Assembly (NCBI GenBank): GCA_030710605.1
Contig: CP092870.1
Span: 49,755,061 to 49,819,060, forward strand
Direction: 5' to 3'
Length of the DNA: 64,000 nucleotides
Source: Cordylochernes scorpioides
Lineage: Eukaryota; Arthropoda; Arachnida; Pseudoscorpiones; Chernetidae
The stretch's first letter is position 1. Each line of letters begins with the position of its first letter. The notes below the pieces were generated by a model. That model searched no databases. It was given only the letters and a program-made list of their open reading frames with translations, and was not told where the DNA came from. The position numbers were made by a program, and so were the translations under genes. Shown here piece after piece: positions 2,776 to 55,890 of this stretch.

Positions 2776-2777
2776 TA

Positions 2778-28120: not shown

Positions 28121-28154
28121 AAATGAGTTTTAAAAATTGTAAAAAAAAAAAAAA

Positions 28155-28930: not shown

Positions 28931-28966
28931 AAATGAGTTTTAAAAAGTGTAAAAAAAAAAAATGCA

Positions 28967-29030: not shown

Positions 29031-29125
29031 CAAACGGTGAAAGAATTAAGAACGAATGACGATGATAACTGTATATTATCCGTGACAGAGGCCACGACAG
29101 ACGGTCGTGACTATATATATTAATG

Positions 29126-29215
29126 ACGTAATGCCCCCCCCCCCCTGCCGGCGGCCCGCGCCCGTTGGCTGCCGGCGAGCACGTGACCTCCCTATGCGCG
29201 CGCATCCGTGACAAA
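29126..29215. repeat. GC-rich islet, copy 1
   Basis: Poly-C followed by CTGCCGGCGGC and GTTGGCTGCCGGCGAGCACG. Repeated at 29606-29690 and inverted inside the Helitron-like element at 30120-30215. Confidence 0.75.
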
Positions 29216-29253
29216 GGCGGCCGATTAGGAAAGACGGTCGTGACTATATATAT

Positions 29254-29530
29254 TAATAATGAATTAGTCAGTATTCCCATGGTCTCCAGCGAAGAGGTGT
29301 GAATTGACTTTTTGAAAATATACATAATAATAAAGATAGAAGCTTCTATAGAAATAAATGAAATAAGCCGAAATAGCTCAGTTAGGAGAGCGTTAGACTG
29401 AATATCTAAAGGTCCCTGGTTCGATCCCGGGTTTCGGCTTTTTTTTTTAATTTTTAAATTTCTACTTACCGTAACTTGACACGTGACTTAACGTGACAGA
29501 ATTGTGCATGACGCTGATAACTGTATTAAA
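29254..29530 (+). repeat. Duplicated tRNA-Phe module
   Basis: Matches 27585-27850 over about 270 bp, from GAATTAGTCAGTATTCCCAT through the tRNA-Phe to GTGACAGAATTGTGCATGAC. It is a segmental duplication with very few changes. Confidence 0.85.
29367..29439 (+). tRNA. tRNA-Phe(GAA), second copy
   Basis: As the 27697 gene, with a better T stem (CCTGG/CCGGG). It has the same T37 in the anticodon loop CTGAATA, and the discriminator base is T instead of A, which argues against normal function. Confidence 0.78.
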
Positions 29531-29605
29531 TATAATCCAAATTGTGCCTTATCACACACTATTTATTTATTTGGATTAGGTCTTATTACCTTGTGTTTAT
29601 AATCT
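29530..29605 (-). repeat. Minisatellite fragment
   Basis: A short minus-orientation unit with the ACACACTATTTATTTATTTGG variant, ending at GC-rich islet 2. Confidence 0.7.
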
Positions 29606-29690
29606 ATGACGTAATCCCCCCCCCTGCCGGCGGCGCGCGCCCGTTGGCTGCCGGCGAGCACGTGACCTCCCTGTGCGCGCATTGTGACAG
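29606..29690. repeat. GC-rich islet, copy 2
   Basis: Same sequence as 29126-29215 with a shorter C-run. Confidence 0.7.
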
Positions 29691-29729
29691 AGGCGGCCGA
29701 TGAGGAAAGACGGTCGTGACTATATATAT

Positions 29730-29848
29730 TAATAATCCAAATTGTACCTTATCATTGGATTTGGTCTTAATACCTTGTGTTTATAATCTATAATCCAAAT
29801 TGTACCTTATCATTGGATTTGGTCTTATTACCTTGTGTTTATAATCTA
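29730..29848 (-). repeat. 58-bp minisatellite, two units
   Basis: Two minus-orientation units with ATAATCCAAATTGTACCTTA, interrupted by the following Helitron-like element. Confidence 0.88.
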
Positions 29849-30425
29849 CTAGATGAATGACCCGGGCAACGCCCGGGTTTACACGATTAAATGTATTATT
29901 CAAACACATAAAACATAGCAAAATAAAACATAGCAAATATAGCAAGAGCAGTTATTTTAAACGGCGAATTATATAAGTTATAGCAAAAAATGAAAATATA
30001 TATGTAAATATGTGAAATAGTTATAAATTAGAAAACCTGTAAATATAGTTAAGGACTTGCATTGTAATTAAGTAAAGCTTCTCGTCTAGAACGCTGAGGC
30101 GATCGCGTGGAACAGCCCTAGCCGAAAGCCATGCGCGCGCACAGGGTAGTCACGTGCTCGCCGGCAGCCAACGGGCGCGCGCCGTCGGCAGGTCGCTTGA
30201 GTGTTCTAGAGGGCGCTGCTCGTGAGCTAAGTCGAATAATTTGAATATATAGTTTTAATAATTGATTTATATATTTTTTAAAATAGCCTATCGTCATCCC
30301 CGTTATTATTTACCTATGTATGAAAATTTTGGTTTGAATTAGTGAACTACTGCGAATTTGTATACCGGAGATACAAACCAACAAACAAACAGACAAACAT
30401 ACAAACATTCATTTATATATATAGA
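29849..30425 (-). mobile_element. Non-autonomous Helitron-like element, long form
   Basis: 577 bp: starts TCTATATATATAAATGAATG at 30425 after an A of the minisatellite and ends with the CCCGGGCGTTGCCCGGGT hairpin and CATTCATCTAG at 29849. Inside are the inverted GC-rich islet and an ATACCGGAGATACAAACC... block shared with 46983-47344. No protein is encoded. Confidence 0.75.
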
Positions 30426-30735
30426 TAATCAAAATTGTACCTTATCATTGGATTTGGTCTTATTACCTTGTGTTCATAATCTATAATCCAAATTGTACCT
30501 TTTCATTGGATTTGGTCTTATTACCTTGTGTTTATAATCTATAATCCAAATTGTACCTTATCATTGGATTTGGTCTTATTACCTTGTGTTTGTAATCTAT
30601 AATCCAAATTGTACCTTATCATTGGATTTGGTGTTATTACTTTGTGTTTATAATCTATAATCCAAATTGTACCTTATCATTGGATTTGATCTTATTACCT
30701 TGTGTTTATAATCTATAATCCAAATTGTACCTTAC
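30426..30735 (-). repeat. 58-bp minisatellite array
   Basis: Five to six minus-orientation units, continuing the array interrupted by the Helitron-like element. Confidence 0.9.
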
Positions 30736-31435
30736 TGTAAAACAGTAAGAACTCTTCTAACTCCATCTTGCTCTTAGCTCGACTTTTATCTGTTCACGGA
30801 ACTTTCCTACTTCAACTGTGTCACTTCGTTTTTTGTGTGTGGACATTCCCAAGCTTTCCACTCTGCCTCGACCACGACTGCCTGTACTCTGTGAAAACTG
30901 TTAAAGGTCTTCCAAAGTGCAGAGAGGTACTGGAAAACTCTCCACGCCCTGACTGTCCCTCTCGGTTACTACAGGTTTGACCCTCGGTTACCACATATAT
31001 TTATCAATTATTTTATCTATTTATATCTATTTATTCATATATCTATCATTATTAATCTTATTTATTCATTTTATGTATTTAACCTTATATAATCCTATAT
31101 GGGCATTTTAATAAATCAGTTTCAATCTCAATCTCTCTCTATCTCTTTTCTGTATTTAACTTTATACCTATTTCCTCATCTAAATTTATTCAATATAAAA
31201 AAGACTTTGATTATTTATAGAAAAAATCAATATGTATTGTTGGGATAATGCTCTTCCTGGCAAATAATGAAAAAGTTAACAACACAGACGCTGTATCTGA
31301 CAGCTATTGTCAATTATTGCCATGGGGCTTTACTACGCGGTGGTAAATATTTATTTGAGGAAATCTAAATTTATTTACAAATTTGGGGTAGAAAATTGCT
31401 TTATAATACTTGTGTGTTTTACCGGCTCTATTTTT
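30736..31435. other. Unassigned DNA with a possible 3' end
   Basis: A less AT-rich part (30740-30980, ORF 30768-30980) has no recognised domain. It is followed by ATTTAT runs and TTTTAATAAATCAGTTTCAATC at about 31106, which looks like the 3' end of a retroelement. Confidence 0.3.
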
Positions 31436-31440
31436 ATATT

Positions 31441-31735
31441 GGGGGTTGGTGGAAGGATGGTATACACTGTTGGTTTTCGACTGCTACGACCCGGGTTCGA
31501 TTCCCGCATTAGACACTTTTTTCTGATAAAAAATATCTTCAATGGTTACCGATTCTTGCAAAAGTCCAATCCCACCAGCGAGTGCAAGTAACAAAACAGG
31601 GCTCTGACACATTTGTAAGTGCAAAGTCGAACTGCTTTTCACATGTGTATACATGTGGTGCACTTACAGTAAAAGCAGTCGCCTACTTCTACCCACCATG
31701 ATTATCATGGCCTGTACCATGTGTACTAGGGATAG
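31441..31735 (+). mobile_element. SINE family A, full-length copy
   Basis: Head GGTTGGTGGAAGGATGGTAT, B-box GGTTCGATTCC near 31493, body with CACCAGCGAGTGCAAGTAAC, one tail unit, ending GTGTACTAGGGATAG. Confidence 0.85.
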
Positions 31736-31799
31736 ATGAAATATATATATATATTTATACCTAATTATTCGTTTTAAAGGAGAATATTTAGACTTGAAC

Positions 31800-32190
31800 T
31801 AATCTAAGAAAAAGGCATCACCTGATCGTGCAAATAAAAGTTGCTGATGGCTTGCTCCATCTATCGGAATAAATATCAACTAATCGTTGAATTCAAATTA
31901 TTCCAGAATTGATCAAATACCTATTCGTTATAAATCAAGAAAAGATAACCACGTAAGCGTTTCGGGCTGTTGGCCCTCATCAGCGTGATGCAAGCTGTAC
32001 CTCAACTACCAAAACTGGTCTTTTAGGTATCCTGAAAATGTGGTTAGCTTTTTTTGGTTAATTAAGAATGAGTATTTGGTCAATTATAGAATGATTTAAA
32101 AATCAACGATTAGTTGATATGTATTCCGATAGATGGCGCAAGCCATCAACAACTTTTACTTGCATCATCAGGAGATGCCTTTATCTTAAT
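31800..32190. mobile_element. Hammerhead repeat with inverted ends
   Basis: The two ends (GTTGCTGATGGCTTGC...ATCTATCGGAAT near 31840 and its mirror near 32130) are inverted copies, and a minus-strand hammerhead lies between them. The left half has the complete hammerhead; the right half starts again at GTGGTTAGCTTTTTTTGG, i.e. just after the cleavage point. No ORF is meaningful. Confidence 0.65.
31945..31999 (-). ncRNA. Hammerhead ribozyme, slightly degenerate
   Basis: Core CTGATGA (31977-31983), stem II GGGC/GCCC and GAAAC are intact, and stem I TCACG/CGTGG pairs. The cleavage region reads CTTA instead of GTA/GTC, so the pair next to the cleavage site is lost and activity is doubtful. Confidence 0.65.
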
Positions 32191-32324
32191 TCATCCACCT
32201 GATCAAATCCAGCAATTTCCCTGTTCTGCTATCTTTCCATCTGATACTGATATGTTTGAAAGAATTAACAGTTTCCTGTCAGATTGTCAAATTATATTGA
32301 AAAAACATGAGCTGTTTATTTTAA

Positions 32325-32395
32325 TTAAACAATTTCTACTGCCCTTACTGCAATGGAAAAATTAATGATAGGGCCTGGCTCATAATACAGTAGAA
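32325..32395 (+). repeat. MITE family M end
   Basis: AACAATTTCTACTGCCCTTACTGCAATGG, one end of the family, joined directly to the following satellite. Confidence 0.55.
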
Positions 32396-33110
32396 CTACC
32401 TCTCTGAAATGGAGACTTAATTGCAGAACCAAAGTGTCCTTTAAGGAGAGGTGTCCTCTTACCGGAGAGTTGCTAAATACAGTAGAACTACCTCTCTGTA
32501 AAGGACACCTAATTACAGAGCCAAAGTGTCCTTTAGGGAGAAGTGTCCTCTTACCGGAGAATTTCTAAATACAGTAGAACTACCTCCCTGTAAAGGACAC
32601 CTAATTGCAGAGCCAAAGTGTCCTTTAGGGAGAGGTGTCCTCTTACCGGAAAGTTGCTGAATACAGTAGAACTACCTCCCTGTAAAGAACAACACCTAGT
32701 TACAAAGCCAAAGTGTCCTTTAGGGAGAGGTGTCCTCTTACCGGAGAGTTGCTAAATACAGTAGAACTACCTCTCTGTAAAGGACACCTAATTACAGAGC
32801 CAAAGTGTCCTTTAGGGAGAAGTGTCCTCTTACCGGAGAGTTGCTAAATACAGTAGATCAACCTCTCTGTAAAGGACGATACCTAGTTACAAAGCCAAAG
32901 TGTCCTTTAGGGAGAGGTGTCCTCTTACCGGGGAGTTACTAAATACAGTAGAACCTCCCTGTAAAGGACACCTAATTGCAGAGTCAAAGTGTCCTTTAGG
33001 GAGAGGTGTCCTCTTACCATCGAGTTGCTAAATAGCAAAAATAGTAATTTTGCAAATGAAAACTGTCCTTGTGTAAAGAGGTGTCCGCTAAAGGTTTTAC
33101 TGTATATTGT
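32388..33110 (+). repeat. About 93-bp tandem satellite
   Basis: Seven units with CAGTAGAACTACCTCTCTG, GAGCCAAAGTGTCCTTTAGG and GGTGTCCTCTTACCGG. Units are 90-98 bp. The last unit ends with GCTAAAGGTTTTACTGTA, which mirrors the TACAGTAGAAC start, so each unit may be half of a TIR. A minus-strand array is at 62757-63112. Confidence 0.88.
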
Positions 33111-33490
33111 TATTTTATACACAGAAGTGGAATCTTTTTAACGGCTTTAGATTTTAATTCTTGTGAAACTCTTAAAATTTTCCCCATTTTAAATATATAA
33201 TTAGTTCGTATATATGTGAAATGATTAATTTTTAATGATACGCTTCTATAAGAAATAATTTGGTTTAATCGGTTTAGTTTCTAGGTAGAACTATTGAAAC
33301 ATTTCTCTCAAACGTCTTTGATTTGATTTGGTATCTTATTTGACGATACCTTTGATGTTCCACAGCTATATATGGTATTAATCAACGCCATATCAGAGTA
33401 ATTGCGACCGGGAAAATCAGCAAAGAGCTTTCAACTCTATCGATTCGCATTTAGAACACATTTTATGTATCATTTTAACAAGCGAGTATA
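33111..33490. other. AT-rich DNA, nothing recognised
   Basis: No gene or repeat was recognised between the satellite and the inverted single satellite unit. Confidence 0.35.
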
Positions 33491-33492
33491 AC

Positions 33493-33608
33493 ACTCATGG
33501 ACAATACTTATCTCGCAGGTCTTCAATAAAGGTCACTCTTATATCTTTCAGAGTTATTGTTTTAATCTCGATATACATGCTAAAAGGTACAACTCCTTAA
33601 GTTTTGCC
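33493..33608 (-). repeat. Single inverted unit of the 118-bp satellite
   Basis: In reverse complement it matches the unit of the 60.2-61.2 kb array: GTACCTTTTAGCATGTATAT, TATCTTTCAGAGTTATTGTT mirrored, and CTCATGGACAATACTTA at the end. It is more diverged than the array units. Confidence 0.75.
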
Positions 33609-33669
33609 TATTTAATTAAAGAAACAGAGGCAATTTTGTCCACATTTGGTTACCACGTGTGTCCACCGC

Positions 33670-34979
33670 ACAAGTATCGCGAATTTTGAATTGTCGCGGG
33701 TTACGTATATTCGAATTTCGATCTTCTTGTGGCTTTATGTTGGTACTCATGTCTCTCACTTATGCCGACAAGCTCGGCCATTTTGAATATTCACTTAATT
33801 GTTGACAGCTGCTTTGCTTGCAGGTGTTTTGGATCGTCTTCGATTTTTACCTATTAAAAAAAATGGATCAAAGAACCTGTATCAAATTTTGTGTGAAAAA
33901 CGAAATTAAGTGCGCGGATGCATTCCGAATGTTGACTGTGGCATACGGAGAAGCTACCTTGGACCTAAGCAACGTTTATCGGTGTTACAAAATGTTCTCA
34001 GAAGGCCGAGAAGATGTGAACGACGAAGAGCGTGCCGGACGCCCGAGCACTTAAACAACAGACGAAAAAATTAATGAAGTGGGGAAAATGATATTGGTCA
34101 ATCGTCGAATCATCGTTAGAGAAGTTGCTGAGGACCTAAACATATCGATTGGCGCGTGCCATTCGATTTTTATCAATGATTTGGGCATGAGACGGGTCGC
34201 CGCGAAACTCGTACCAAAATTGCTCAATTGCGACCAAAAACAGCATCGCATGAACATTGCTAATGAGATGTTGGACTCTGTCCGCGACGACCCAAATTTG
34301 CTCCAGAGGGTCATAACTGGTGACGAAGCGTGGGTTTATGGTTATGACGTGGAAACCAAAGCTCAATCATCTCAATTGAAGCTGCCGCACGAACCAAGAC
34401 CGAAAAAAGCGCGCCAAGTTCGGTCGAATGTGAAAGTTTTGCTGACAGTTTTCTTCGATTGCAGGGGCGTGGTGCATCATGAGTTCTTGCCACAGGGTAG
34501 AACGGTCAATAAGGAATATTACCTGCAAGTTATGCGCAATTTGCGCAAAGCAATCCGCCAGAAACGCCCGGATTTGTGGAAGAACAAAAATTGGCTTTTG
34601 CACCACGATAACGCCCCTGCTCACACATCGTTGTTTGTGCGCGACTTTTTGGCCAAAAACAACACACTAATGATGCCGCAGCCACCGTATTCCCCAGATC
34701 TGGCCCCCTGTGACTTTTTCTTGTTCCCTAAACTGAAGAGGCCCATGAAAGGACGACGTTAAGCTACGCTTGACGAGATAAAGACGGCATCGAAGGAGGA
34801 GCTGAAAAATATTTTTTAAAAATGATTTTTTGAAGTGCTTCGAAGATTGGAAAAACCGTTGGCACAAGTGTATAATATCTCATGGGGATTACTTCGAAGG
34901 GGACAAAATAGGTATTCATGAATAAATAAATAATTTTTGAAAAAACACAAAAGTCGCGATACTTTTTGAACACACCTCG
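33670..34979 (+). mobile_element. Mariner transposon, nearly complete
   Basis: The right TIR is at about 34939-34979 (GTCGCGATACTTTTTGAACA ...). The left end keeps part of the matching sequence (AAGTATCGCGAATTTTG near 33678) but its outermost part is lost or diverged. One transposase gene with a few stops lies between them. Confidence 0.85.
33863..34872 (+). pseudogene. Mariner (DD34D) transposase with few stops
   Basis: The start ATG at 33863 opens a helix-turn-helix N-terminus (residues 1-63) with the GRPST hook, then TAA at 34052-34054. The rest is open from 34055 to the TAA at 34760-34762: second HTH (VREVAEDLNISIGACHSIF), first Asp in TGDEAWVYGYD, second in HHDNAPAHTS, third in YSPDLAPCDFFLFPKLK. 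Exactly 34 residues separate the second and third Asp, the DD34D signature. After the stop the C-terminal sequence goes on (ATLDEIKTASKEEL) with further breaks. The few lesions suggest a moderately recent insertion. Confidence 0.93.
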
Positions 34980-35039
34980 TATTTAGAGTAATTTTTAATT
35001 GCGTTGACAAATCTATAGCTCACACCTATATCAGTAAGT

Positions 35040-35880
35040 TTTTTTCCCATAAGAGCGAATAAGGAACTGTATCGAACGCTAATTTTTATCAACAAAGAAT
35101 GTATAAAATGTTCCTCTTTTTCTTATAAGTGTCAGCTGGATTAGAGAAACCAAAGATATGATCTTGACATGCGTTCTACTTTTTAAACCCCTCCTGAATT
35201 CCAGCAATTATTCTTCTTTTTCCAGTCCAATTAACTAGTCTGATGTTGAGTATAGTAGTGAATAGTTTTGCCAAATTACTCAAAAATGCTATACTCCGGT
35301 AATTCGAAGAATTATCTCAATCTCTCTTCTTTAATATAGGAGAGATGAATTATAGACTTTATCAAAATTGAGGGGAATACGGAAGTCTTTAATAGGCTGT
35401 TATATATTATTCAGAGAAATCAGGTATTTCAGGGGCAAAGCTTTAAATGCTTCATTTATAACTTCATCCGTGCTAGTTGCCTTGCTGCACTTTAACTGAG
35501 AAATACCTCTTGTTATTTCCCGCATTGATATTTCAGAGTTCATCTCACACTTTCTGCAAAGGTGAAAGTCATTGGAAGAGAGAAATATTCAGATATTGTA
35601 TCTATTGCTGGAAGTTTGTTGTAAAATATCTGCCATTTTGAAATTGAAATATTGCCCTGAATGTTTCTTTTTGTACAAGACTATTTGTATCGGATACGAT
35701 CACTGCCTCACTTACTAAGCTCGGAAAGCTTGCCGCATCCTGGATATGTCTGGCCTTATCTAAATAGTTATGGCAGAGCTTGACTGTATCTTCTTGCCAG
35801 ACTTCTTCTGGTCTCCAAACGAAGCCTATTTGCTTCCTTAAAAATGCCCACAACACACTGATGACACTAATAATTCACCA
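35040..35880 (-). pseudogene. Decayed LINE ORF2: reverse transcriptase part
   Basis: In several minus-strand frames: a pre-RT segment (EITRGISQLKCSKATSTDEVINEAFK, split in two here, at about 35440-35530) and RT motifs 1-2 (NYRSIAFLSNLAKLF near 35290 and the following helix with a GFKK turn near 35190). Many shifts exist. It is probably the continuation of the endonuclease at 37260-38570, separated by the foldback cluster at 36024-37050. Confidence 0.65.
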
Positions 35881-36278
35881 ACACCCGATTGTTACTGACA
35901 CACTTTTATTAAACTTACACATCCTTATATACAGAATTATATTTACAAATATGTAAATCTTCTCGCTGAATAAGCAAATAAATAATTGTATTGAGAAGGA
36001 TCTTGAGCATATACTAATATTTTAATTAAAAAGACATATATTGGATCAAAATATCATTTATTTTACCAATATTTCAGTTGGCTGAACGCCAACCTTTATC
36101 AAGGTATTATAACATATTTATGTGTAAAACAACACTTAAAGTTTCACCGCATAAGTTTCTTTTTTGTGAAAAATCAACATTTATTTCAAAGAGAAATATT
36201 TACTATTTCTAACTTTTTTGGATGAAGTATGAAAGGGTGAAAATATGAAGAGTAATGGCGAACGGAAAAATAAAAGTG

Positions 36279-36351
36279 TCCAGGGATGGGAATCGAACCC
36301 ACAACGTTCCGCTTACCGGGCAGATGCCATGTCCACTAGGCTACCCTGGAC
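36279..36351 (-). other. tRNA-like head of SINE family B
   Basis: The acceptor ends GTCCAGG/CCTGGAC pair, and the B-box GGTTCGATTCC is perfect. The stem TCTGC/GCGGA closes a loop CCGGTAA, which would give GGT (Thr) but with C at position 33. It is a SINE promoter head, not a normal tRNA. Confidence 0.7.
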
Positions 36352-36684
36352 GCATTTTTCCGTTCGTAAATAATACTTAAAGTAACTTATATTACATTAT
36401 AAAGGACTGCGGCGTATGATTATAAAACAACACTTAAAGTTTCACCGCATAAGTTTCTTTTCTCTGAAAAATCAACATTTATTTCAAAGAGAAATATTTA
36501 CTATTTCTGACTTTTTTGGATGAAGTATGAAAGGGTGAAAATATGAAGAGTAATGGCGAACGGAAAAATAAAAGAAAAGAAACTTATGCGGTGAAACTTT
36601 AAGTGTTGTTTTATAATCATACGCCGCAGTCCTTTATAATGTAATATAAGTTACTTTAAGTATTATTTACGAACGGAAAAATGC

Positions 36685-36759
36685 GTCCAGGGTAGCCTAG
36701 TGGACATGGCATCTGCCCGGTAAGCGGAACGTTGTGGGTTCGATTCCCATCCCTGGACT
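36685..36759 (+). other. tRNA-like head of SINE family B, plus copy
   Basis: Same sequence as the 36279 head in opposite orientation, at the centre of the palindromic cluster, with intact A- and B-box regions. Confidence 0.7.
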
Positions 36760-37259
36760 CTTCATTACCATTACTCTTCATATTTTCACCCTTTCATACT
36801 TCATCCAAAAAAGTTAGAAATAGTAAATATTTCTCTTTGAAATAAATGTTGATTTTTCACAGAAAAGAAACTTATGCGGTGAAACTTTAAGTGTTGTTTT
36901 ATAATCATACGCAGCAGTCCTTTATAATGTAATATTTATGTGTGTCAACAACAGATTAATATAATACCTTGATAAAGGTTGGCGTTCAACCAACTGAAAT
37001 ATTGGTAAAATAAATGATATTTTGATCCAATATATGTCTTTTTAATTAAAGATTTATTTATGGATTGATCTATTTTTAAATGTCATTAATACATAGTATC
37101 ACTTTCTGCCTATAACATATATATTGAAGTTCGTATCCCTATTAGATCTCTTGTATAACATTAAAGAGATTTCAAGGTCTTCTTGGATTCATAGCAAGCA
37201 GAGTAAACCATGGTTTCAACCTTAGTTTGTCAGCTTTTGTCACCATTCGTATTCCCGTT

Positions 37260-38570
37260 ATGTCCATTGCGTTTCTATTCTGTTTAATGAAATTATTCGT
37301 AAAATTGTCAATCGAATTATTCCAGGATTCGTACAAATTCCCCAGTGTCTGAGTAAATTGAGTAGCTTTTTCAGAATTCTATTTGTATTTTTCCAGGCTT
37401 TTTGGGGTGAAGATTCTTTCTCGCCTTTGTCCAGGGTGAGCATCTAAGCTAATTATCAGAGGTAGGAGGTTTGAGTATGTAAGTTCCCCAAACTTTAAAT
37501 TTAAGATGTTTTCCAAAATATTGTTTGACACAATACAATATTCCACTACAGAGAAGCCCTGTTCGGATATAAATGTATAATTACCAATTTTATCTCCCTT
37601 AGTTATTCCATTTATAATTGTGCGAATATTGTTACCCAGAAATTCCTTAAATTGTTCTGCGGGTGTAGATATTGTCGCGTTTGACCCTTCCCGGTTCTTC
37701 GCGACGTCGCCGCTTCCTCCTTCATGGATCACCTACCCGGACTCCCGTTGATTTCCTCTGAAGCTCTACCCTGCAGAACACCCAAAGACCTCCGAGAACC
37801 ACCACTCAAGTAGATCTCCTTTCCTCTGGCAGTATCTCTACCACTGGTGGGGGGACACGAGAGACTTACCAGAAGAGTAGCGACTGTGGCGTTGGCGGGA
37901 GAGTCATAACAGCAACCGGCATCAAGACTTCTAACACTTCTACTTTTATTGTCATCTTTAAACCACATTAAATATAACTCGAATAACAGTTAACGGATAT
38001 TTATATTTTTTACACACCAAAGCCAATATAAACGTGTATTTACAAACATTTGCCCCAGGAAATAGGACCACAGCAGTCGGCGATTCCCACACCAGTTCCA
38101 GACCGGAAATAGGCGAAAGCGCCATCTATTGGCGGAGGTTGTAGGTGTTTTTCAGGCCCATATACGCCACAATATTATATAGTCTCTGGAGTTGCGTATT
38201 TTAATAGATGGTAGATATTTCCCGTCTCACCTACACGGATATTCAAATCGCCAGTTAACACTATTGCATATCCTTCCGTTTTATTCCATTTTGGTGAGAA
38301 GATTATTACGATGAGTAATATTCAATATTAATATGCGAACAGAATGCTTTATTTTAGAAACAATTATAAAGCAGACTGAAATCCAGTGACTCACTATTTC
38401 CACCCTTTCTATTTTTTCCTGAATGTTGTTTCGTATGCCGACAATTCTGCCTGATCCTCTATCCCTCTTTTTGTCTTCAGTAGCAAGCCATTCGTAAAGA
38501 TGAACATCTTTAGGTTTATTGAATAATTGGCGATCTTTCCATGTTTCTAGAAACCTACAATTATACTACA
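37260..38570 (-). pseudogene. LINE APE-type endonuclease, interrupted
   Basis: Minus-strand pieces of an AP-endonuclease-like domain: an upstream part at 38180-38560 with LTGDLNIRVGE (about 38222-38262, the catalytic GDxN motif), and a downstream part at 37380-37735 with GNYTFISEQGFSVVEYCIVS and LPLIISLD. About 430 bp (37740-38170) of other DNA, including repeat family K, splits the domain. A short helix region follows at 37258-37380. Frameshifts make it non-functional. The RT that should follow is at 35040-35880. Confidence 0.72.
37905..38170. repeat. Repeat family K inside the endonuclease
   Basis: Shares AGCAACCGGCA, GCCCCAGGAAATAGGA and GCGCCATCTATTGGCGG with 15005-15520; it splits the LINE endonuclease. 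Confidence 0.55.
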
Positions 38571-38745
38571 TTTTTCCGTTTATCATTACTCTTCACAATT
38601 CATCCTTTCATACTTCATCCCTAAGGTTAGAAATAATCGTTATTTCTCCTTAAAATAAATTTCATTTTTCGTTCAAAAGAAACACATGCGGGATAATTTT
38701 CAAATGTCGTTCAACAATCATAAGCCGCATTATATTGTATTATGT
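38570..38745 (+). mobile_element. SINE family B, 5'-truncated
   Basis: Body and tail only (TTTTTCCGTTTATCATTACT ... AATCATAAGCCGCATTATAT); the tRNA-like head is missing. Confidence 0.75.
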
Positions 38746-38984
38746 ATGCTACATGTTTCCAACAGGTCAAATAAAGAGCAGTCTGTCATCAACCGATCCA
38801 GTCCATTGACCTTCCAGCCAATAAGTGTCATCTGTTTATTATCTGAATATTTACATTTATTTACAGAAATCGGTTGGTCTGCCATTAGCTATATTGTCTC
38901 TTTTAGCATTCCTCATCTGTCCATCAACTACCATGTAGTAAATGCCATTTAGGAAGTGTTTATTATCCTTCAAGTTAGTTCTGA

Positions 38985-39595
38985 TTCATTTTTTGCAAAA
39001 GTCTTTTCTCTTTTCTATTAAAACTCTTCGCTGCTCTCTGATCTGGAATCTCTAATCCCTGCTTACAAGAAAACCAAGTTCTCTAAGTTTGGAAGACTCT
39101 TTTAGGAGACTTACTCTTGACTCGTGATCAGGGATTTCAATTAGGATAGGCGTTTTTGGTCCCCTAGCCAGACGGTACATATGGCGATTGCCTTTTGTAA
39201 AGGTCTCTTATCTATTAAAATTCTTCGTTTCTCTCTGATCTGTAAACTGTAATCCTTACTTACAAAAATACCAAGCTTTCTAAGTTTGGAAGAATATTTT
39301 AGGAGACCCATTCTGGACTCGTGATTGAGGATTTCAATTAGGATAGGTGCTTTTGGCCTCCTAGACCGACAGTAACATATGGCGATTGCCTTTTGTAAAA
39401 GTCTTTTCTATTAAAATTATTCGCTTGTCTCTGATCTGTAATCTCTAATCCCAGCTCAGAAGAATACCAAATTCTCTAAGTTTGGAAGAATTTTTAGAAG
39501 ACGCATTTTGGACTCGTGATGAGGGATTTCGATTAGGATAGGTGCTTTTGGTCTCCTAGACTGACGGTGACATATGATTGCCACATCTTCAGTAA
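38985..39595 (+). repeat. Three direct repeats of about 190 bp
   Basis: The block with CTCTCTGATCTG, AAGTTTGGAAGA, GGACTCGTGATGAGGGATTT and TAGGATAGGTGCTTTTGG occurs three times (about 39000, 39200 and 39400). No coding was recognised. Confidence 0.8.
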
Positions 39596-39919
39596 TTTGC
39601 ATACCTTACATATTATCTTCTCAACCTTTGGGGTAGCAGCAAATTCCGATTCTCTGACTTTTCCGAGTCGATGTCTTATAGTATTCGATTTTTTTCACGG
39701 GTTCGTCTCTCCAAAGCCTCCGCGTGTTCTTCTATCTTTCTTATTTTTAGAGTAATAAGGGAAATTTACTTCGTGTTGTTCACCATTGCATCTATGCACG
39801 AGGCTATAGATCACTCTATTCCGGCAATTATTCTGCCCCAGTTTTCTGTTCAATGTCAAGCATCCTTGCATCCAGTTTCTCTTACAATCTATTTACTTCA
39901 GACGACAATTTTTTCATTT

Positions 39920-40550
39920 CATTTTATTAATCAACGAGGTGCGATATTGAAATATTTGCGTCTATTACAGAGGAAACAAACAAAACAACAAATTAGAACT
40001 TAGAATTAAATATTTACAAATTTACATGTATTAATCGACAGAGTTCATAGATTTTATATAGACAAAGATGTAAGAGAGTTAAATCATTTAGATCGGAGGA
40101 CAATCTCACTTCTGTAAAGTTCGGACAGTCATAGATAAGGTGAAGTTTGTTCAGTTTCTCCGCAGGAACAATTTGGCGTCTCTGATAGACCTCCTAATGG
40201 AATTTTCCGTGTGATGTGACAAATTGAGTGACTATAAAATTTGAATGGAACTGTGTAGGAATTCCGTTTGTTATCAGTAACTTTAGATCGTTCACTGGAA
40301 CCTGATTCAGAGTTGGATAGGGCATCAATGTGGGTTGTCTCTTCGGCCCTGGATTTATAATTCTTTCCCACCGATTATCAGTAAGGCAATAATCATCTTC
40401 AGCCAAGAAATCCAACCAACAATCCACCCGTAGTATTTCATCTTATTCAGTTCAATTTTAAAATCGGTAAAATTTAACCGTAATCTGTATGGGTTTGTTA
40501 TGGAAATAAGCATGTATAAATACTGAATTGTATCAAATCCTCCAAACAAA
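39920..40550 (-). pseudogene. LINE ORF2 C-terminus, family N
   Basis: Minus-strand frames encode a post-RT region (FGGFDTIQYLYMLIS near 40530, a segment with WLDFLAEDDYCLT near 40400, FVTSHGKFH near 40210) and a Cys-rich end (NCSCGETEQTSPYL, then IYDCPNFTEVR). Frames change three times. The end and 3' UTR match 22110-22560. Confidence 0.75.
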
Positions 40551-40882
40551 AAAGACCTCTGGGAAAACCCCAGGACTATAATAGAAAAGCTGAGACAACG
40601 GAACCTAATGGAGATCGTTTAAACGACTTGAGGAATAAGCAACAACAACAACACAACGGACAGCATGTAAATAACAATCATCAGATATGTTGCTTATGTT
40701 GTTGCTTATTTATTTAATGTATATGTTTATTTAATGCTCTTTTTCTTAATTGTTTATTTTCTTTTTGACAATTCTGTTACCTACTCTACTACAATTATTG
40801 TAAATAGTTTCACGCGCAATTATCCAGATCGGATATAGCGTGTCTTATTTGCAACTGGGAATAAATAAATTATATTTCTATT
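40535..40882 (+). mobile_element. LINE 3' end on the plus strand
   Basis: An ORF2 end (NKKDLWENPRTIIEKLRQRN) stops at TAA near 40620, followed by a 3' UTR with CGGATATAGCGTGTCTTATT and AATAAATAAATT. The 3' UTR resembles that of the 19262-21055 LINE (GGATATGGCGTGTCTCTCCC). It abuts the minus-strand LINE above. Confidence 0.65.
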
Positions 40883-41570
40883 ATATATATATATCAATGC
40901 ATTATTAATATATATATATATTATTTTGGATAAAAGGTATCTCCTGAAAAAATAAACTTTTATCCGGCAGAGTTTCCTCACCACTCTGGAAGTACCTGCC
41001 TCGGCGCGTTACCCTTTTTGGCGGTTCACCCCCCAGGAGCCCTAAATAGTCCTGAGAAGTCCTATTCCACTTCTAGCTTTTACTAACCCCACCATCGGAT
41101 CTGACCTGATGGCGCCAGCAAAGCTAGGGCCCTAGAACTGACCATTGTTGAAGACTCGTGTCCCAGGAAACTGAATAATTTTACAAATTAAAATAAATTT
41201 GATATATATATTTAAAATGTTATAAGCTATGAAAATAAGAAATTCATGTTCACAATTTCATATGATGTTGGGATATGATTGATTTATAATTCCAGAAATT
41301 AAACATTTTTTTACAAAGTTAATTTAATGATTCACCTATGATAGAGATGATATCTGACAAGATTCTCAAGGAAAATTATTAAGAATATAAGGTTGATTGT
41401 ATTTGATGACTGTGTGGTGATATTCCAACATGTAGTTCTTGAAATTCTGGTAGCTGGATAGCAATTGGACTCTGTTTCTTAAAATTATTTCCTATACGGC
41501 GACTTGATAATATCAGTGTAATATTGATTCAAAGTGATTGTCGTAAAGATAGAGGCTGCCTGGCCGGCAT
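40883..41570. other. Unassigned DNA with TA repeats
   Basis: TA runs at 40883-40920. A less AT-rich part at 40960-41150 (CTCCCCAGGAGCCC-like, CACCATCGGATCTGACCTGA) has no recognised identity. Confidence 0.35.
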
Positions 41571-41573
41571 TCA

Positions 41574-41651
41574 TTGTTCTTCAAATATAAGACACTTCGA
41601 CCAGTAAATCCTTTTATTGTCTGTCCGAAGTGTCTTTTATTTGAAGAACAA
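41574..41651. repeat. Hairpin with 26-bp arms
   Basis: Arms 41574-41599 and 41626-41651 (TTGTTCTTCAAATATAAGAC and mirror) with a 26-nt loop and one mismatch. AAAGTGATTGT stands on both sides (41531 and 41651), which may be a target duplication. Confidence 0.75.
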
Positions 41652-41919
41652 AGTGATTGTGTATGTGTAAAAGGTATATTTTGTTTTTACTTCTTGTACA
41701 TACAGTACTGGTCATGAAAATCACGGCGGTAAGAGGTTTGTGACTACTCATACTTTAGGTACACCAAATGTCTTTACTAGTAATATCAGGCAATAGAACC
41801 ATGGGGTTAATGTCTGGATATACGTATAAGCCAATAAAGAGAGTGGTTTATGCTTAAATTGGAAACTTCCTTAAGATATGTTAATGTGTGAGTGTGTGTG
41901 TATATAGTATATAATACGG

Positions 41920-42340
41920 CTTGTGATTGTAAAACGACATTTAAAAATTATCCCTCTTTTTTTTTTTCTTTTAAACGAAAAATCGAAATTTATTTTTAAG
42001 AAGAAATAACGATTATTTACAACCTTAGAGATGAGGTATGAAAGGATGAATTGGGAAGAGTAATGATAAACGGAAAAATAAAAGTGTCCAGGGATGGGAA
42101 TCGAACCCATGCCTAGTGGACATGGCATCTGCCCAGTAAGCGGAAAACTGTGGGTTCGATTCCCATCCCTGGACACTTTATTTTTCCGTTTATCATTACT
42201 CTTCACAATTCACCCTTTCATACCTCATCTCTAAGGTCGGAAATCATCGTTATTTCTCCTTAAAAATAAATTTCGATTTTTCGTTTAAAAGAAACTCATG
42301 CGGGATAATTTTCAAATGTCGTTTTACATATATAGTATAT
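41920..42340. mobile_element. Head-to-head SINE family B palindrome
   Basis: A minus copy (41920-42106) and a plus copy (42106-42335) meet at their tRNA-like heads. The plus head has B-box GGTTCGATTCC near 42152; the minus head is cut after GAATCGAACCCA. Arms are about 190 bp. Confidence 0.75.
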
Positions 42341-44765: not shown

Positions 44766-45110
44766 AGTGGCTACAGAAATCACAGTGCATAGGTTAGCGT
44801 ATCACTGAAAACAATAGGAATAAGGCCACTTAGGCATAAATTAATACAAAACAATAACGAGCCATCTGTATATAACAATGAAATAGATAGATGGCGAGTT
44901 ATTGCTTTGTACTAATTTATGCCTTAACTAGCTATGTATTTATTGTTTGCGGAAAAGCATTGCCCGATGCAAATATTTATATATAATTCTGGTGTCCTAA
45001 AAGCTTATATCCATAGTTTACTTAAATACCATTTCTAAGATTCCATCCTTCAGTGTAACATATATAAACAGAATGATCCAATACAGTATTAGAATTCTAA
45101 AGAAGCTGTC
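44766..45110. other. Unassigned AT-rich DNA
   Basis: The part 44960-45050 is related to 53350-53430 (AAAGCTTATATCCATAGTTT), a low-copy repeat. No gene was seen. Confidence 0.35.
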
Positions 45111-45114
45111 TGGT

Positions 45115-45215
45115 AGATTAAATTGGCGAAACCGCTGGGAGGGTTTACCACTGATGAACCAAGCCCTCTCAACATTTTTTCTTCGCAGTAAGGACAGTAG
45201 AAGTTTGTTTTCTAT
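45115..45215 (+). repeat. MITE family M fragment
   Basis: GGCGAAACCGCTGGGAGGGT interior and the CGCAGTAAGGACAGTAGAAG end. Confidence 0.6.
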
Positions 45216-45357
45216 ATAAAAGAAACATTCATTCTTTAATTATTTCATTTCTTATATCGTATATGTGTGTGTTTTGAAAATAGATCAATCCATATTTAAA
45301 TCTTTAGACAATACAAAGGCATATATTGGATTGAACATATTGAAAAATATTATATAT

Positions 45358-46265: not shown

Positions 46266-46563
46266 TATATACGTTTTTAAGATATGTAAAATAGATTTTA
46301 TCATATATATATCTGAACTTGTATTTAAATCGGGCGTGTTATAATTGGCTACAAGTAATACTGATTGTATTTTAAATATTTAGAGTCACGATATTGTCCC
46401 GTAGATTGATCTCTATATCTGTTAGGATATATTTATACTTTAAAATAAACACATATCTTGCATTAACCTAAATTTATTTTATAACAGAATGGAATATTTT
46501 TACATATTAGGAAAAAACAATAGAAAAAAAATAATAAAAAGGTCAGGGGTTGATATTAAAAAT

Positions 46564-46975
46564 AAAAAAGGCATATCCTGACCAGGAGCACATGTGCTTT
46601 TCAGAAGGCAGAGCGCCATCTGGTGGAACAGAAATCAACTAAGCATTGATTTAGCCTGTTCCCTGATATTTGACCAAACCAATTTCTTGATAAATCAAGA
46701 AAAGCCATCCACGAACGCGTTTCGCGCTGTTGGCGCTCGTCAGCGTGGTGTAGGCTGTACCACTGCGACCAAAAAGAATTTTGGTCCCAGAGGCTTCTTG
46801 AGAAACCAAGAAATGGGTATTTAAGGCCAAACTTGCGTAAATACGCTTGGCCAAATTGGGTTGGCCAAATATCAAGGAACAGGCTAAATCCATGATGAGT
46901 TGATTTCTGTTCCACCAGATGGCGCTCTGCCTTCTGAAAAGCACATGTGCTCCTGGTCAGGATATGCCTTTTTTA
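46564..46975 (-). mobile_element. Hammerhead element with about 127-bp terminal inverted repeats
   Basis: The ends start AAAAAAGGCATATCCTGACC on both strands and are nearly identical for about 127 bp (GCACATGTGCTTTTCAGAAG, GAGCGCCATCTGGTGGAACA). The middle contains one hammerhead and the CAGAGGCTTCTTGAGAAACC block. The element is 412 bp and non-coding; ORFs on both strands are chance. It may be a head-to-head pair of Penelope-type LTRs. Confidence 0.75.
46703..46756 (-). ncRNA. Hammerhead ribozyme with compensatory changes
   Basis: Stem I outer AGCC/GGCT, inner CCACG/CGTGG, core CTGACGA, stem II GCGC/GCGC with loop CAACA, GAAAC, stem III ACGCGT, cleavage site GTT. Compared with the 6223 copy, stem II (GGGC/GCCC to GCGC/GCGC) and outer stem I (AGCT/AGCT to AGCC/GGCT) changed on both strands with pairing kept. 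This covariation is direct evidence for selection on the fold. GTT is an allowed but slower cleavage triplet. Confidence 0.85.
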
Positions 46976-46982
46976 TTTTTAA

Positions 46983-47344
46983 CTAGACGGGTGACCCGGG
47001 CTTCGCCCTGGGATTGACCCGTGAGCATATCTACCCGAGTGATATATATTTAGATAAGATTTTTTTTGTAATTGTTTGTTATTAGCAATATCTATTTGTT
47101 TGCATCAGCATAATTTAATCTAATCATTGATAGAGGGCGATGTTCGTGAGCTAAGTTGAATAATTTGAATATATAGTTTTAATAATTGATTTATATATTT
47201 TTTTTAAAATAGCCTATCGTCTTCCCCGTATTTTTTTACCTATGTATGGAAATTTTGGTTTGAATTTAGTGAACTACTGCGAATTTGTATACCGGACATA
47301 CAAACAAACAAACATACAAACATTGATTTTTATATATATATAGA
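46983..47344 (-). mobile_element. Non-autonomous Helitron-like element
   Basis: Starts TCTATATATATATAAAAATC at 47344 after an A and ends with the CAGGGCGAAGCCCGGGT hairpin and CACCCGTCTAG at 46983 before a T. It shares its 5' half with 29849-30425 (GTATACAAATTCGCAGTAG). Confidence 0.72.
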
Positions 47345-47527
47345 TATTAATATATGTGAAAAAATAGTACAAATGTGATATTGTACTGGGATAAGGTGCG
47401 TACATTATAAAAAAAAGGCATCTCCTTATCGTGCAACTGAAAGTTTTTGATGGCTTGCGCCATCTATCGGAATAAATATAAACTTATTCCAGAATTGGTA
47501 AATACCCATTCTTGATAAATAAAAAAA

Positions 47528-47572
47528 GCTAACCATGTACGCGTTTCGGGCTGTTGGCCCTCATCAGCGTTG
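47528..47572 (-). pseudogene. Hammerhead ribozyme missing stem I 5' strand
   Basis: Core CTGATGA, stem II and GAAACGCGTA are perfect, but the sequence upstream of the core (ACAACG) cannot pair with CATGG; the element is joined here to unrelated sequence. Confidence 0.65.
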
Positions 47573-47662
47573 TTTCGCGGTCTCGCGCAATTCTGGCCTT
47601 AAATACCCGTTTCGTGATTTTCCAGGATATTTGAATGACCAGTTTTTTAGTCGTTGAGGTAC

Positions 47663-47716
47663 AGCTTACACCACGCTGATGAGGGCCAACAGCCTGAAAT
47701 ATGTACGTGGTTAGCT
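47663..47716 (+). ncRNA. Hammerhead ribozyme, nearly intact
   Basis: Stem I AGCT/AGCT and CCACG/CGTGG, core CTGATGA (47676-47682), stem II GGGC/GCCT with a G-T pair, GAAAT and cleavage site GTA. The T next to GAAA would form a wobble with the G before TA. Probably still able to fold. Confidence 0.75.
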
Positions 47717-48059
47717 TTTCTAGATTAATCAAGAATGGGTATTTGGCCAATTCTGGAATAATTAAAAATAAACGAGAACAGTTGATATTTATTCCGATAG
47801 ATGGCGCAAGCCATCAGCAACTTTCAGTTACACGATAAGGAAATGCCTTTTTCTTTTTCATATTAACCTATGTTGCATTATTAGAAATTAAATACAAAAC
47901 ATAACATACCAAATAGAGGCAGAAAACTCTCTCAATAAAAATAAACGAAAGTTTTAAATATAGCAATTATAATGTTGCCTTATCCAATTCCACAAAATAT
48001 AATCAGAGAAATATGTATATTTAAATATATTTTTTGTTCTTAAAATATAGCCATCCATA

Positions 48060-53254: not shown

Positions 53255-53600
53255 ATGATTCTTTTAAAAATTGAACAATTTCTACTGTCCTTGCTGCAAT
53301 GGAAACATTGATGGGAGGGCCTGGCTCATCAAGAGCGATTGCTCGAAGCATATTATATATTTATAATTATATGTAATTCTACTGTCCTCAAAGCTTATGT
53401 CCATAGTTCATCTTAATACCCATTCCAAGAGTCTAGCATCAGTATCACTATAAAAGGAAAATCGAAAAATGCCATATAACAGCGGTATGGTAGATTAAAC
53501 TGGCAAAACCGCTGGGAGGGTTCACCACTGATGAGTCAGGCCCTCCCATTAATTTTTCCATTGCAGTAAGGGCAGTAGAAATTGTGTATTCATCATAAAT
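53255..53600. repeat. MITE family M, inverted pair
   Basis: A left half (CAATTTCTACTGTCCTTGCTGC, 53275) and a right half (CCATTGCAGTAAGGGCAGTAG, to 53585) face each other, with a low-copy repeat (53345-53440) between them. Confidence 0.65.
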
Positions 53601-54654: not shown

Positions 54655-55890
54655 CGTGCAAAATGAGGAGACTTTACAGAACGCAACAGAATTGATCACG
54701 TTGAATAGTAGACTTGAGAAACTGCGGTTTATTCTACTGTCATATAGCTGCTCGGGTTGGTCAAAACGTTAATAAAATATTTATTTGTGGGCCAAGGAGT
54801 GCCATAGAGAAGGTCAGGACGTTCAACTTTTACGTCTCAACGGTTCTATGTTGCTACTGCTCGAGAGGACATACTCGAATAACCAATCAAGATCGTACAG
54901 TCATATCACCTTTCCTGAGTCAGGAACTCAAAGTTGATGCCATGATTATAAATCTCATCAAGAACAGTGCGATGTCTGTAGCACAATTGGATATCAGCAT
55001 GGCGAATATTGATTCTCGACACTACTGTTTCAGATAACTCCGCCTTTGCCGGTCCCAAGCCCGGATGAAAAAGGAGGATGGGTAGCAGTAACTAGCTCAC
55101 TAAAAGACCTGGGTTCAGCTGGGCCAGCTGATAGTACCCTGTAAGGACTCCTAATCCAGGGATACAGGATGAGCAGCGTTTGTACTCCATGTTAGGAGCG
55201 GCTGCACATGGTGTCTGTTCCTCATGTCAGAGGCGGCCATTTCTTTTGGAGCTAAGTCTGCCTGCCACTGAGTAGTCTCTCAGTTTTAATGAGACAAAGG
55301 CAGACGCATTCTACTTCACCCAGTCATGATGGTTGTCAAACAGACACCATCAAGGGTCACAACTTGATATCCAAATATGATTGAGTGAATATAAGAAAGA
55401 AGAAGAATATCTCATCTTACTGGCCAATTACTTAGAGAGATGGTATGCCATTGGGTACATATTACGGTCATCATAGCTCATCATAATACCATCACTAGTT
55501 CACATAGCTGGTAATTTGGACAGCCGCTGTTATATATACATAGCTGAAATGTTATGACACTTCATCTTTGCCCATTGGCCTTTTTTCTTCGAAACCTCTT
55601 TATATTACTTTTCAACAAGGCAATGCACGTCCTGATTTTTCTCATGCTGTTCAAATCTTTCTCGATATAGAGTATGCTAATCTGCTGTCCTGGACAGAAC
55701 GTATTTCGGATCTCACACCAATTGGAAAAGTCTGGTCAATGGATGCTCAGAGACTATATACCAACACATTCGATTGATCAAATAAGGCATAGAGATAAAG
55801 TCAAATGGACTTCTGTACCAGCAACTGCCATCCAAACTGTGTTACACTCGATGGATAGCAGAATCTGTAATAGCAGCCAGAGGTACTGAT
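54655..55890 (+). pseudogene. Tc1-like transposase split by a family G repeat
   Basis: The N-terminal part (about 54665-55030) shows SYCHIAARVGQN-like HTH sequence (read as LFYCHIAARVGQN), a hook region (GHTRITNQDR) and SQELK. The catalytic end is at 55568-55889: QQGNARPDFSHAVQIFLDIE in place of QQDNARPH, then SDLTPIGKVWSMDAQRL in place of SPDLSPIE. Catalytic Asp and Glu are both replaced by Gly. The 55034-55430 repeat separates the halves. Both parts are strongly decayed. Confidence 0.75.
55034..55430 (+). repeat. Dispersed repeat family G, longest single copy
   Basis: Runs from CGCCTTTGCCGGTCCCAAGC to the ATGATTGAGTGAATATAAG block. It is inserted in the Tc1 gene, so its outer limits here should define the family ends. 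Confidence 0.7.

What the first reader, a model, noticed from the sequence alone, without database searches (positions are those of the whole stretch)
46564..46975. Hammerhead inside a 412-bp element with long inverted ends, with compensatory base changes
The minus hammerhead at 46703-46756 differs from the 6223 copy by paired changes in stem II (GGGC/GCCC to GCGC/GCGC) and outer stem I (AGCT/AGCT to AGCC/GGCT). Paired change in two stems indicates selection on the fold. The about 127-bp inverted ends are unusual for retrozymes and suggest head-to-head copies.
Basis: partly seen in the sequence, partly recalled or inferred. Interest (0 to 1): 0.85.

Follow-up and report, generated by a model that had tools for sequence, protein, structure and literature searches.

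The report
Ribozyme retroelement copied head-to-head, Penelope-style
A tiny non-coding element that carries a self-cutting RNA sits in this animal genome as two mirror-image partial copies, and its ends show the same unusual insertion scar as Penelope retrotransposons, which suggests that Penelope enzymes move it.

Summary
A type I hammerhead lies on the minus strand at 46703-46756, between inverted arms of 130 nt (95%). The insert is about 46511-46981 (471 bp): a ~350-nt retrozyme unit joined head-to-head to a shortened second copy of itself.

Chance nesting does not explain it. The genome (2.6 Gb, unnamed) holds 31,661 exact copies of the hammerhead core. In a genome-order sample, adjacent units are head-to-head 32 times and tail-to-tail twice, with 28 different junctions in 29 copies.

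Outer (RNA 3') ends fall on two sites about 48 nt apart. In 22 of 24 head-to-head copies with both ends classed, each end uses a different site (21 of 23 without a duplicate); in a later set, 4 of 4. Repeats here with the minimal hammerhead typical of Penelope-like elements (PLEs) show the same in 14 of 14. Papers call the extra stretch the PLE "tail" and tie it to two reverse-transcription start sites.

Best reading: a metazoan retrozyme moved in trans by PLE enzymes, each insertion made by reverse transcription from both ends of one break. Covariation of the ribozyme rests on few family-level events. Ribozyme cleavage leaves no detectable mark at the copies' 5' ends.

The parts
46511..46981 (-). 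whole insertion: head-to-head pair of partial family-A retrozyme units (sense strand of the longer, ribozyme-bearing arm = window minus)
   Evidence: alignment to the 350-nt unit taken from a tandem array; outer ends at unit positions 235 and 180; length 471 bp
46511..46848 (-). longer arm: unit with hammerhead, ending at the distal RNA 3' site s2 (with tail)
   Evidence: 46511-46851 - A[240-235], 91% identity; arm end refined by reading the junction
46853..46981 (+). shorter arm: inverted second copy of the unit's 3' part, ending at the proximal RNA 3' site s1 (no tail)
   Evidence: 46853-46975 + A[58-180], 94%; inverted repeat
46703..46756 (-). type I hammerhead ribozyme (very short stem III, predicted cleavage after GUU before CGUGG)
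   Evidence: core and stems read directly; sub-threshold Rfam HH9 hit 46694-46759; pair counts on 72 relatives
46511..46556 (-). tail: stretch between s1 and s2, present at the left end only
   Evidence: a one-sided stretch of the same kind in PLE copies
46541..46583 (-). 7-bp stem (sense GGUCAGG/CCUGACC) that encloses s1
   Evidence: a 7-bp stem in the geometry of the PLE site, shuffle p 0.001 (window element), 0.0046 (family B); suggestive only
46849..46852 (.). inner head-to-head junction: GGCC between the arms
   Evidence: left-arm 5' end at unit 243, right-arm 5' end at unit 58, gap 4; positions read
   Evidence: families A and B 68% identical
31805..32204 (.). another head-to-head insertion, family B (ends at 180 and 196, both classed s1)
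47354..47855 (.). another head-to-head insertion, family B, ends at s2 (232) and s1 (179)

Best explanation
This is one insertion of a non-autonomous metazoan retrozyme (family A: 350-nt unit, no long ORF, type I hammerhead), moved in trans by the reverse transcriptase/GIY-YIG machinery of Penelope-like elements (PLEs). Shown by sequence: units occur in tandem and head-to-head; the RNA 3' ends point outward and fall on two sites about 48 nt apart, s1 and s2; within an insertion one end mostly uses s1 and the other s2; inner 5' ends vary. Repeats of the same genome with the PLE-type minimal hammerhead show the same orientation and the same one-tail rule. Inferred: the enzyme cuts both strands of an AT-rich target; each 3'-OH primes reverse transcription inside the RNA, one at s1 and one at s2; the two cDNAs stop at variable points and are joined in the middle, giving a palindrome with a variable centre. 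The template crosses the hammerhead site (tandem units with 0-1 differences), as expected of a circular or uncut multimeric RNA. The hammerhead presumably makes unit-length and circular RNA beforehand, as reported for other metazoan retrozymes; that step was not tested here.
For: Orientation of adjacent same-family pieces in a genome-order sample of 45 loci: -+ 32, +- 2, same strand 12; hammerhead neighbours within 1 kb among the first 100 sites: -+ 7, +- 2, same strand 16. End rule: 29 head-to-head copies, 24 with both ends classed, 22 of 24 mixed s1/s2 (p 1.8e-5 against independence); L085 and L088 are a segmental duplicate of one insertion, leaving 21 of 23 (p 3.3e-5). The site windows were set; 8 further loci with the same windows gave 4 of 4 classed (5 copies in all). 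PLE-type: 14 of 14 head-to-head minimal-hammerhead pairs have the tail on one arm only by reading; by score 13 of 14 at my cut-off of 18, the last 17 against 8. Their neighbours within 1 kb are 14 of 14 -+; within 5 kb -+ 17, +- 1, ++ 1. GIY-YIG neighbours within 5 kb: 11 of 11 -+. The motif lies near GIY-YIG hits in 3 of 10 such loci read. A 7-bp stem encloses s1 at matching offsets in the window element, B and PLE, with unrelated sequences. Target duplications: near-boundary shared words average 7.9 against 5.0 in re-paired flanks, highest of 200 re-pairings 6.0. Tandem units: L100, four full units identical; L104 differences 0, 0, 1, 1. Two of 22 family-A pairs have arms from different subfamilies (L028, L072) and 2 of 14 PLE-type pairs differ at the loop base: two RNAs, not one cDNA folding back. 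One insertion (L121) joins a PLE-type repeat and another ribozyme unit. Literature: an Anolis PLE protein cleaves and extends both strands and starts at two internal sites that explain the tail (PMC11167929, parts 1 and 2 of 4 read); inverted, mostly head-to-head repeats with a tail on one of them are described for Penelope (PMC3846280, passages).
Against: No similarity between A or B and two PLE-repeat pieces (117 and 220 nt, plus strand, E up to 0.1), so recognition would have to rest on structure. No enrichment of copies starting at the hammerhead cleavage site: 138 matches there (33 of the 100 listed look like a 6-nt deletion) against 171 five bases downstream and 32 five bases upstream. 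The window copy has no clear target duplication; many long ones elsewhere are AT-microsatellite. The L100 version of the s1 stem has only 5 Watson-Crick pairs in the tested geometry (p 0.048), and without fixing the geometry B's stem is not rare (0.115). Exceptions to the end rule: 1 s1/s1 and 1 s2/s2 of 24, 5 more copies with an unclassed end; in the similarity-chosen set 17 of 20 classed are mixed (14 of 16 with one per junction); in the window 2 of 3. In the similarity-chosen set three junctions recur in different copies (L015/L022, L016/L020, L026/L027), which independent joining does not explain unless junctions have hot spots or head-to-head sources re-transposed. No complete RT-bearing PLE was read. 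One genome only, no RNA data.
Confidence: 0.8

Rival explanations
1. Head-to-head arms come from one cDNA that folds back and copies itself (self-priming), as proposed for Penelope palindromes on an antisense template.
For: Arms usually carry the same subfamily alleles (465 of 525 against 0.68 shuffled, 0 of 5000); short overlaps at some junctions; self-priming proposed in PMC3846280 (passages).
Against: Fold-back copying should reproduce the start site and tail at both ends, but one end has the tail and the other does not in 22 of 24 and 14 of 14 PLE-type pairs. L028 and L072 have arms from different subfamilies; L108 and L110 differ at the loop base.
Confidence: 0.12
2. A foldback or MITE-like DNA transposon with about 127-bp terminal inverted repeats that happens to contain a hammerhead.
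For: Long inverted ends, TTAA words at both ends of the arms, high copy number.
Against: The ends are not fixed: two alternative 3' sites, variable arm length and centre, head-to-tail tandem units, copies without a second arm.
Confidence: 0.03
3. Mobilised by another retrotransposon class (LINE) with twin priming rather than by PLE.
For: Twin priming also gives inverted 5' parts (recalled); a reverse transcriptase frame, recalled as LINE-like, is in the window (19662-20141, RVT_1).
Against: Twin priming (recalled) inverts a different, more 5' part of the RNA; here both arms carry the same 3' part with 3' ends outward. The PLE one-tail rule is matched. I did not search for shared LINE 3' ends.
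Confidence: 0.06
4. Chance nested insertion of one solo unit beside another.
For: High copy number; L028 and L072 could be such cases.
Against: -+ 32 against +- 2 (p 3.5e-8) and complementary ends.
Confidence: 0.02

Closest known systems
Metazoan non-LTR retrozymes (Cervera and de la Pena 2020, PMC7229834, parts 1-4 of 6 read)
   Same: 350/338-nt units, type I hammerhead, tandem copies, about 40% GC, no RT, coexistence with minimal PLE-type hammerheads; weak helix III like the axolotl/newt kind.
   Different: The word 'inverted' does not occur in the main text, and the parts read do not describe head-to-head pairs, two 3' sites or a one-tail rule; circRNA not tested here.
Penelope-like elements, Penelope/Poseidon type (PMC3846280 passages; PMC11167929 parts 1-2 of 4)
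   Same: Head-to-head inverted repeats, tandem copies, optional tail on one of the inverted repeats, two RT start sites downstream of a hammerhead, AT-rich targets.
   Different: No ORF for RT or GIY-YIG, no similarity found to the PLE-repeat pieces of this genome, other hammerhead (longer stem I, CAACA loop).
Newt satellite 2 / axolotl Rtz_331 and Rtz_353 retrozymes
   Same: Unit length and a helix III with almost no stem and a palindromic loop, by the description in PMC7229834.
   Different: Sequences not compared here.

Membership tests
metazoan non-LTR retrozyme | type I hammerhead in the unit | tested here: met
   core and stems read; standard pairs in 94.9% of 1080 cells on 72 sequences
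metazoan non-LTR retrozyme | unit of about 170-400 nt, low GC | tested here: met
   350 and 338 nt; 40.0% and 41.1% GC
metazoan non-LTR retrozyme | tandem dimers to multimers | tested here: met
   L100, L104, L073; the window copy itself is not a direct tandem
metazoan non-LTR retrozyme | no protein of its own | tested here: met
   longest ATG frame 33 aa (A dimer), 44 aa (B dimer), 80 aa in the window insert
metazoan non-LTR retrozyme | expressed as linear and circular RNA; ribozyme self-cleaves | not testable with these tools
   no RNA data for this genome
Penelope-like element (as member) | ORF with RT and GIY-YIG | tested here: not met
   no frame over 80 aa in the 471-bp insert; works like, is not, a PLE
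Penelope-like element (insertion pattern) | head-to-head inverted repeats with tail on one end | tested here: met
   22 of 24 (21 of 23 without a duplicate) and 4 of 4; PLE-type yardstick 14 of 14
Penelope-like element (insertion pattern) | target-site duplication | tested here: inconclusive
   raised over re-paired flanks, >=8 nt in 26 of 53; absent in the window copy
foldback/MITE DNA transposon | fixed terminal inverted repeats | tested here: not met
   ends and centre vary

The most novel reading that the evidence does not exclude
Every PLE-machinery insertion, of PLEs and of their ribozyme parasites alike, is built by two reverse-transcription events, one from each end of a double-strand break, and the enzyme enforces asymmetry: one start must be at s1 and the other at s2. 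That would mean an asymmetric dimer carrying two RNAs, with an s1-enclosing stem as the shared recognition structure. Retrozymes would then be to PLEs what SINEs are to LINEs, mimicking a folded start site and not a sequence.
Probability: 0.45. Interest if true: 0.78.

Novelty: new variant of a known kind. Interest (0 to 1): 0.64.

Why it matters
Who mobilises animal retrozymes has been open: the papers seen name PLEs as a strong but unproven candidate (PMC7229834 discussion; PMC7761336 passages). The end pattern gives a genomic test that can be run in any species, and the one-start-each rule makes a specific prediction about how the PLE enzyme inserts DNA, testable with the published in vitro Anolis system.

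Tried and rejected
Tested and not found: a footprint of ribozyme cleavage. If cleaved linear RNA were the usual template, copies should begin at CGTGG; genome-wide counts show no excess there, although 7 of 120 arm ends in hand lie at 28-31.

Arm identity as proof of one template was inconclusive: mean 7.7 differences within against 12.7 between, but the partner is (co-)nearest in only 7 of 22.

Similarity of A and B with two PLE-repeat pieces: none found. Dimer energy of the hammerhead could not be evaluated because the structure is not nested. R-scape was not available; the count of structure pairs was used. In one search the chance figure for family A used a threshold stricter than A's own stem and is not used. 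The animal could not be named: the family search for an arthropod marker did not complete. Family C, a third unit, showed head-to-head pairs, but its ends were too mixed to test the rule.

Rows left out: L059, L066, L074, L086 and L087; these and L011, L019, L035; L001-L008 (which repeat other loci) and the GIY-YIG loci L048-L057.

Full report
WHAT IS THERE. Window 46564-46975 was read. Inverted arms of 130 nt, 95% complementary, lie 167 nt apart, and a type I hammerhead lies on the minus strand at 46703-46756. Rfam lists it below threshold (HH9, 25.5 bits against 52; the 6220-6285 copy 28.1 bits). The window lies in a 2.62-Gb, 24-contig genome without a name, and the 412-bp query has 117 matches among only 40 scored of 4,772 candidates.

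THE UNIT. Copies fetched with flanks fall into two groups: 20 that match the whole query and 19 that match only positions 1-285. In 13 of the 19 no inverted piece was found nearby; 6 (L032, L037, L039, L040, L042, L045) have one placed differently. In several of the 19 the sequence instead runs on into the start of the same unit. The right arm is therefore a second, inverted, shortened copy. Tandem arrays give the unit length: 350 nt for family A (L100, four full units identical) and 338 nt for family B (L104; 0, 0, 1 and 1 differences, one of the four being the reference). A and B are 68% identical. The core pattern CTGANGAGNNNNAANNNNNNGAAACGNGTNCGTGG occurs 31,661 times, 0 in the reversed control.

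ARCHITECTURE. Coordinates below are on the sense unit, 0 at the C of CTGA. I took loci in genome order from the start of contig 1 (L058-L107; 45 after leaving out 5 that repeat others), so the choice does not depend on inverted arms, but it does require an intact core. Adjacent same-family pieces are -+ 32, +- 2, -- 5, ++ 7. The - then + order means 5' sides inside and RNA 3' ends outside. Inner junctions vary: 60 were read over all loci, from overlaps of 15 nt to gaps of 17 nt. The 29 genome-order copies have 28 distinct junctions, the one shared being a segmental duplicate (L085/L088); the 24 similarity-chosen copies have 19, with two duplicates and three junctions that recur in other copies. 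The recurring ones are unexplained.

THE TWO SITES. Outer 3' ends cluster near 173-200 (s1) and 214-250 (s2) in both families; the class windows were set. Of 29 head-to-head copies, 24 had both ends classed: 11 s1-left/s2-right, 11 s2-left/s1-right, 1 s1/s1, 1 s2/s2. The binomial chance of 22 or more mixed is 1.8e-5; without the duplicate it is 21 of 23, 3.3e-5. Eight more loci fetched later (8 of 20 that I had asked for) and classed with the same windows gave 4 of 4 (a fifth copy had an unclassed end). In the similarity-chosen loci 17 of 20 classed copies are mixed, 14 of 16 with one per junction. In the window, 2 of 3 are mixed, the element in question among them (s2 left, s1 right).

PLE YARDSTICK. 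GIY-YIG hits in this genome (146 listed of 150 scored, 17,015 candidates) have 11 neighbours within 5 kb, all - then +. Three of 10 loci around such hits (L049, L051, L052) hold a minimal hammerhead of the kind CTGACGA.GACAAAAG.TTTTTGTCGAAACGTCGA (L051's is divergent, and in L049 it lies opposite to the GIY-YIG frame). The exact pattern occurs 4,639 times. In its first 100 sites, neighbours within 1 kb are 14 of 14 - then +; within 5 kb -+ 17, +- 1, ++ 1. All 14 close pairs were fetched. In each, one arm ends near ...CAAGAAA and the other runs about 33 nt further, through GCCGGCCAGGCAGCCTCTATCTTCACGAT. By score, 13 of 14 are one-tailed at my cut-off of 18, and the fourteenth (L111) has 17 against 8, with a small deletion. 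PMC11167929 (parts 1 and 2 of 4 read) reports that an Anolis PLE protein cleaves and extends both strands, that reverse transcription starts at two adjacent internal sites, and that the stretch between them is the genomic tail; it saw no difference in start site between the two strands. PMC3846280 (passages read) describes inverted repeats, head-to-head most often, with the tail optionally on one of them. So the insertion pattern of the ribozyme unit is that of PLEs.

A POSSIBLE SHARED START STRUCTURE. Around s1, A, B and PLE each can form a 7-bp stem whose arms begin 24-27 nt before and end 14-16 nt after the site, with unrelated sequences: GGUCAGG/CCUGACC (window), GAUAAGG/CCUUAUC (B), CUGGCCG/CGGCCAG (PLE). 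With the geometry fixed from PLE, shuffles reach the same stem in 0.001 (window) and 0.0046 (B) of trials; the L100 version of A has 5 Watson-Crick pairs (0.048). Without fixing the geometry the figure is 0.006 for PLE and 0.115 for B. Other positions of these units can form stems of 6-7 bp in this geometry too. This is suggestive only.

TEMPLATES. Allele concordance between the two arms of 22 family-A pairs is 465 of 525, shuffled mean 0.68, 0 of 5000 as high. So arms usually come from the same source, yet L028 (9 of 21) and L072 (9 of 24) join different subfamilies, and PLE-type L108 and L110 differ at the loop base. That speaks for two RNA molecules per insertion at least in those cases. 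L028 and L072 could also be nested insertions.

TARGET SITES. For 53 head-to-head copies the longest word shared by the two boundaries averages 7.9 nt, against 5.0 (sd 0.32, highest 5.96 of 200 re-pairings); 26 of 53 have 8 nt or more (18% expected). Several are plain, such as ATTATGATTTATA in L014 and ATAGTGTTCTTTAT in L018; others are AT-repeats. The window copy has none that convinces; its right edge abuts what looks like another repeat.

THE RIBOZYME. On 72 hammerheads 94.9% of cells pair (slid structures 25-41%), and 59 cells have changes on both sides against 24.0 shuffled (0 of 500); pairs with such a change are 5 against 3.1 (36 of 500), further pair types 20 against 17.0 (8 of 500). 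Most double changes come from two pairs fixed between families (columns 15-62: CG 41, UA 24; 33-43: CG 36, GC 29). The lone 70-mer does not prefer the hammerhead fold, as expected for a helix III of one or two pairs; PMC7229834 (parts 1-4 of 6 read) reports that retrozymes with such a helix cleave better as dimers. A genome-wide look for copies that begin at the cleavage site found no excess. The reverse transcriptase therefore seems to copy across the site, from circular or uncut RNA.

WHAT IS NEW. Searches that paired retrozyme, hammerhead or Penelope with inverted, head-to-head, palindromic, tail or pseudo-LTR listed no title or abstract start that reports head-to-head retrozymes or their 3' sites. 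I read no listed paper in full, one search listed 8 of 2,503, and subscription papers are not in the library. PLEs as movers of retrozymes are proposed in print (PMC7229834, PMC7761336, PMC11722881 passages), and the tail on one of the two PLE repeats is described qualitatively (PMC3846280). What this adds is an insertion-pattern test that agrees with the proposal, and a count for the one-tail rule. Shown: architecture, end sites, complementarity of ends, PLE parallel. Inferred: PLE enzyme acting in trans, double-ended priming, circular template, role of the hammerhead.

Noticed in passing
window 2772-2826 + and 55031-55085 +: Sub-threshold twister-P1 ribozyme hits (48.1 and 44.7 bits), each within the same repeat (84% over 199 nt). 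PMC7761336 (passage) mentions twister at the 5' end of RTE retrotransposons, so these may be RTE ends.
   Followed up: partly
L121:522-893; window 44830-45230, 18488-18641, 53277-53583: A third tandem unit (family C, 372 nt), with no similarity found to A and B, holds hammerhead pieces in the order stem III strand, C, stem I strand, GAAAC, then CACCA-CTGATGAG: by eye a non-circularly permuted hammerhead, a kind discussed in PMC10085705 (passages). It too occurs head-to-head.
   Followed up: partly
L121 (C1:6288180-6289540): One head-to-head insertion whose arms run from a PLE-type repeat straight into family C, with the same joint in both arms: a PLE/ribozyme-unit chimera.
   Followed up: partly
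L053, L048: L053 has an ORF with GIY-YIG near the N-terminus (16-96 of 483 aa) and no other Pfam match; in L048 the GIY-YIG hit overlaps the start of a 402-aa ORF without Pfam match. Could be PLEs with permuted domains (recalled).
   Followed up: no
window 46983-47030: CTAGACGGGTGACCCGGGCTTCGCCC, by look the start of another repeat, lies directly against the element's right end; a similar motif is seen in L118.
   Followed up: no
window 23386-42166: Ten tRNA matches, several alike, and in 28305-28859 an ORF of repeated PNCTLSWMWSCYLVFIIY units.
   Followed up: no
L100 (C1:5645400-5650800): A large recent palindrome: about 2.5 units on one arm and about 5.1 on the other, four full units identical, tail on the left end only.
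   Followed up: partly
L015/L022, L016/L020, L026/L027: Pairs of head-to-head copies that share the same inner junction (within 4 nt); for L016/L020 and L026/L027 the similarity stops near the element's edges, so they are different sites (L015/L022 flanks not compared). Hot-spot junction or re-transposed head-to-head source; unexplained.
   Followed up: no
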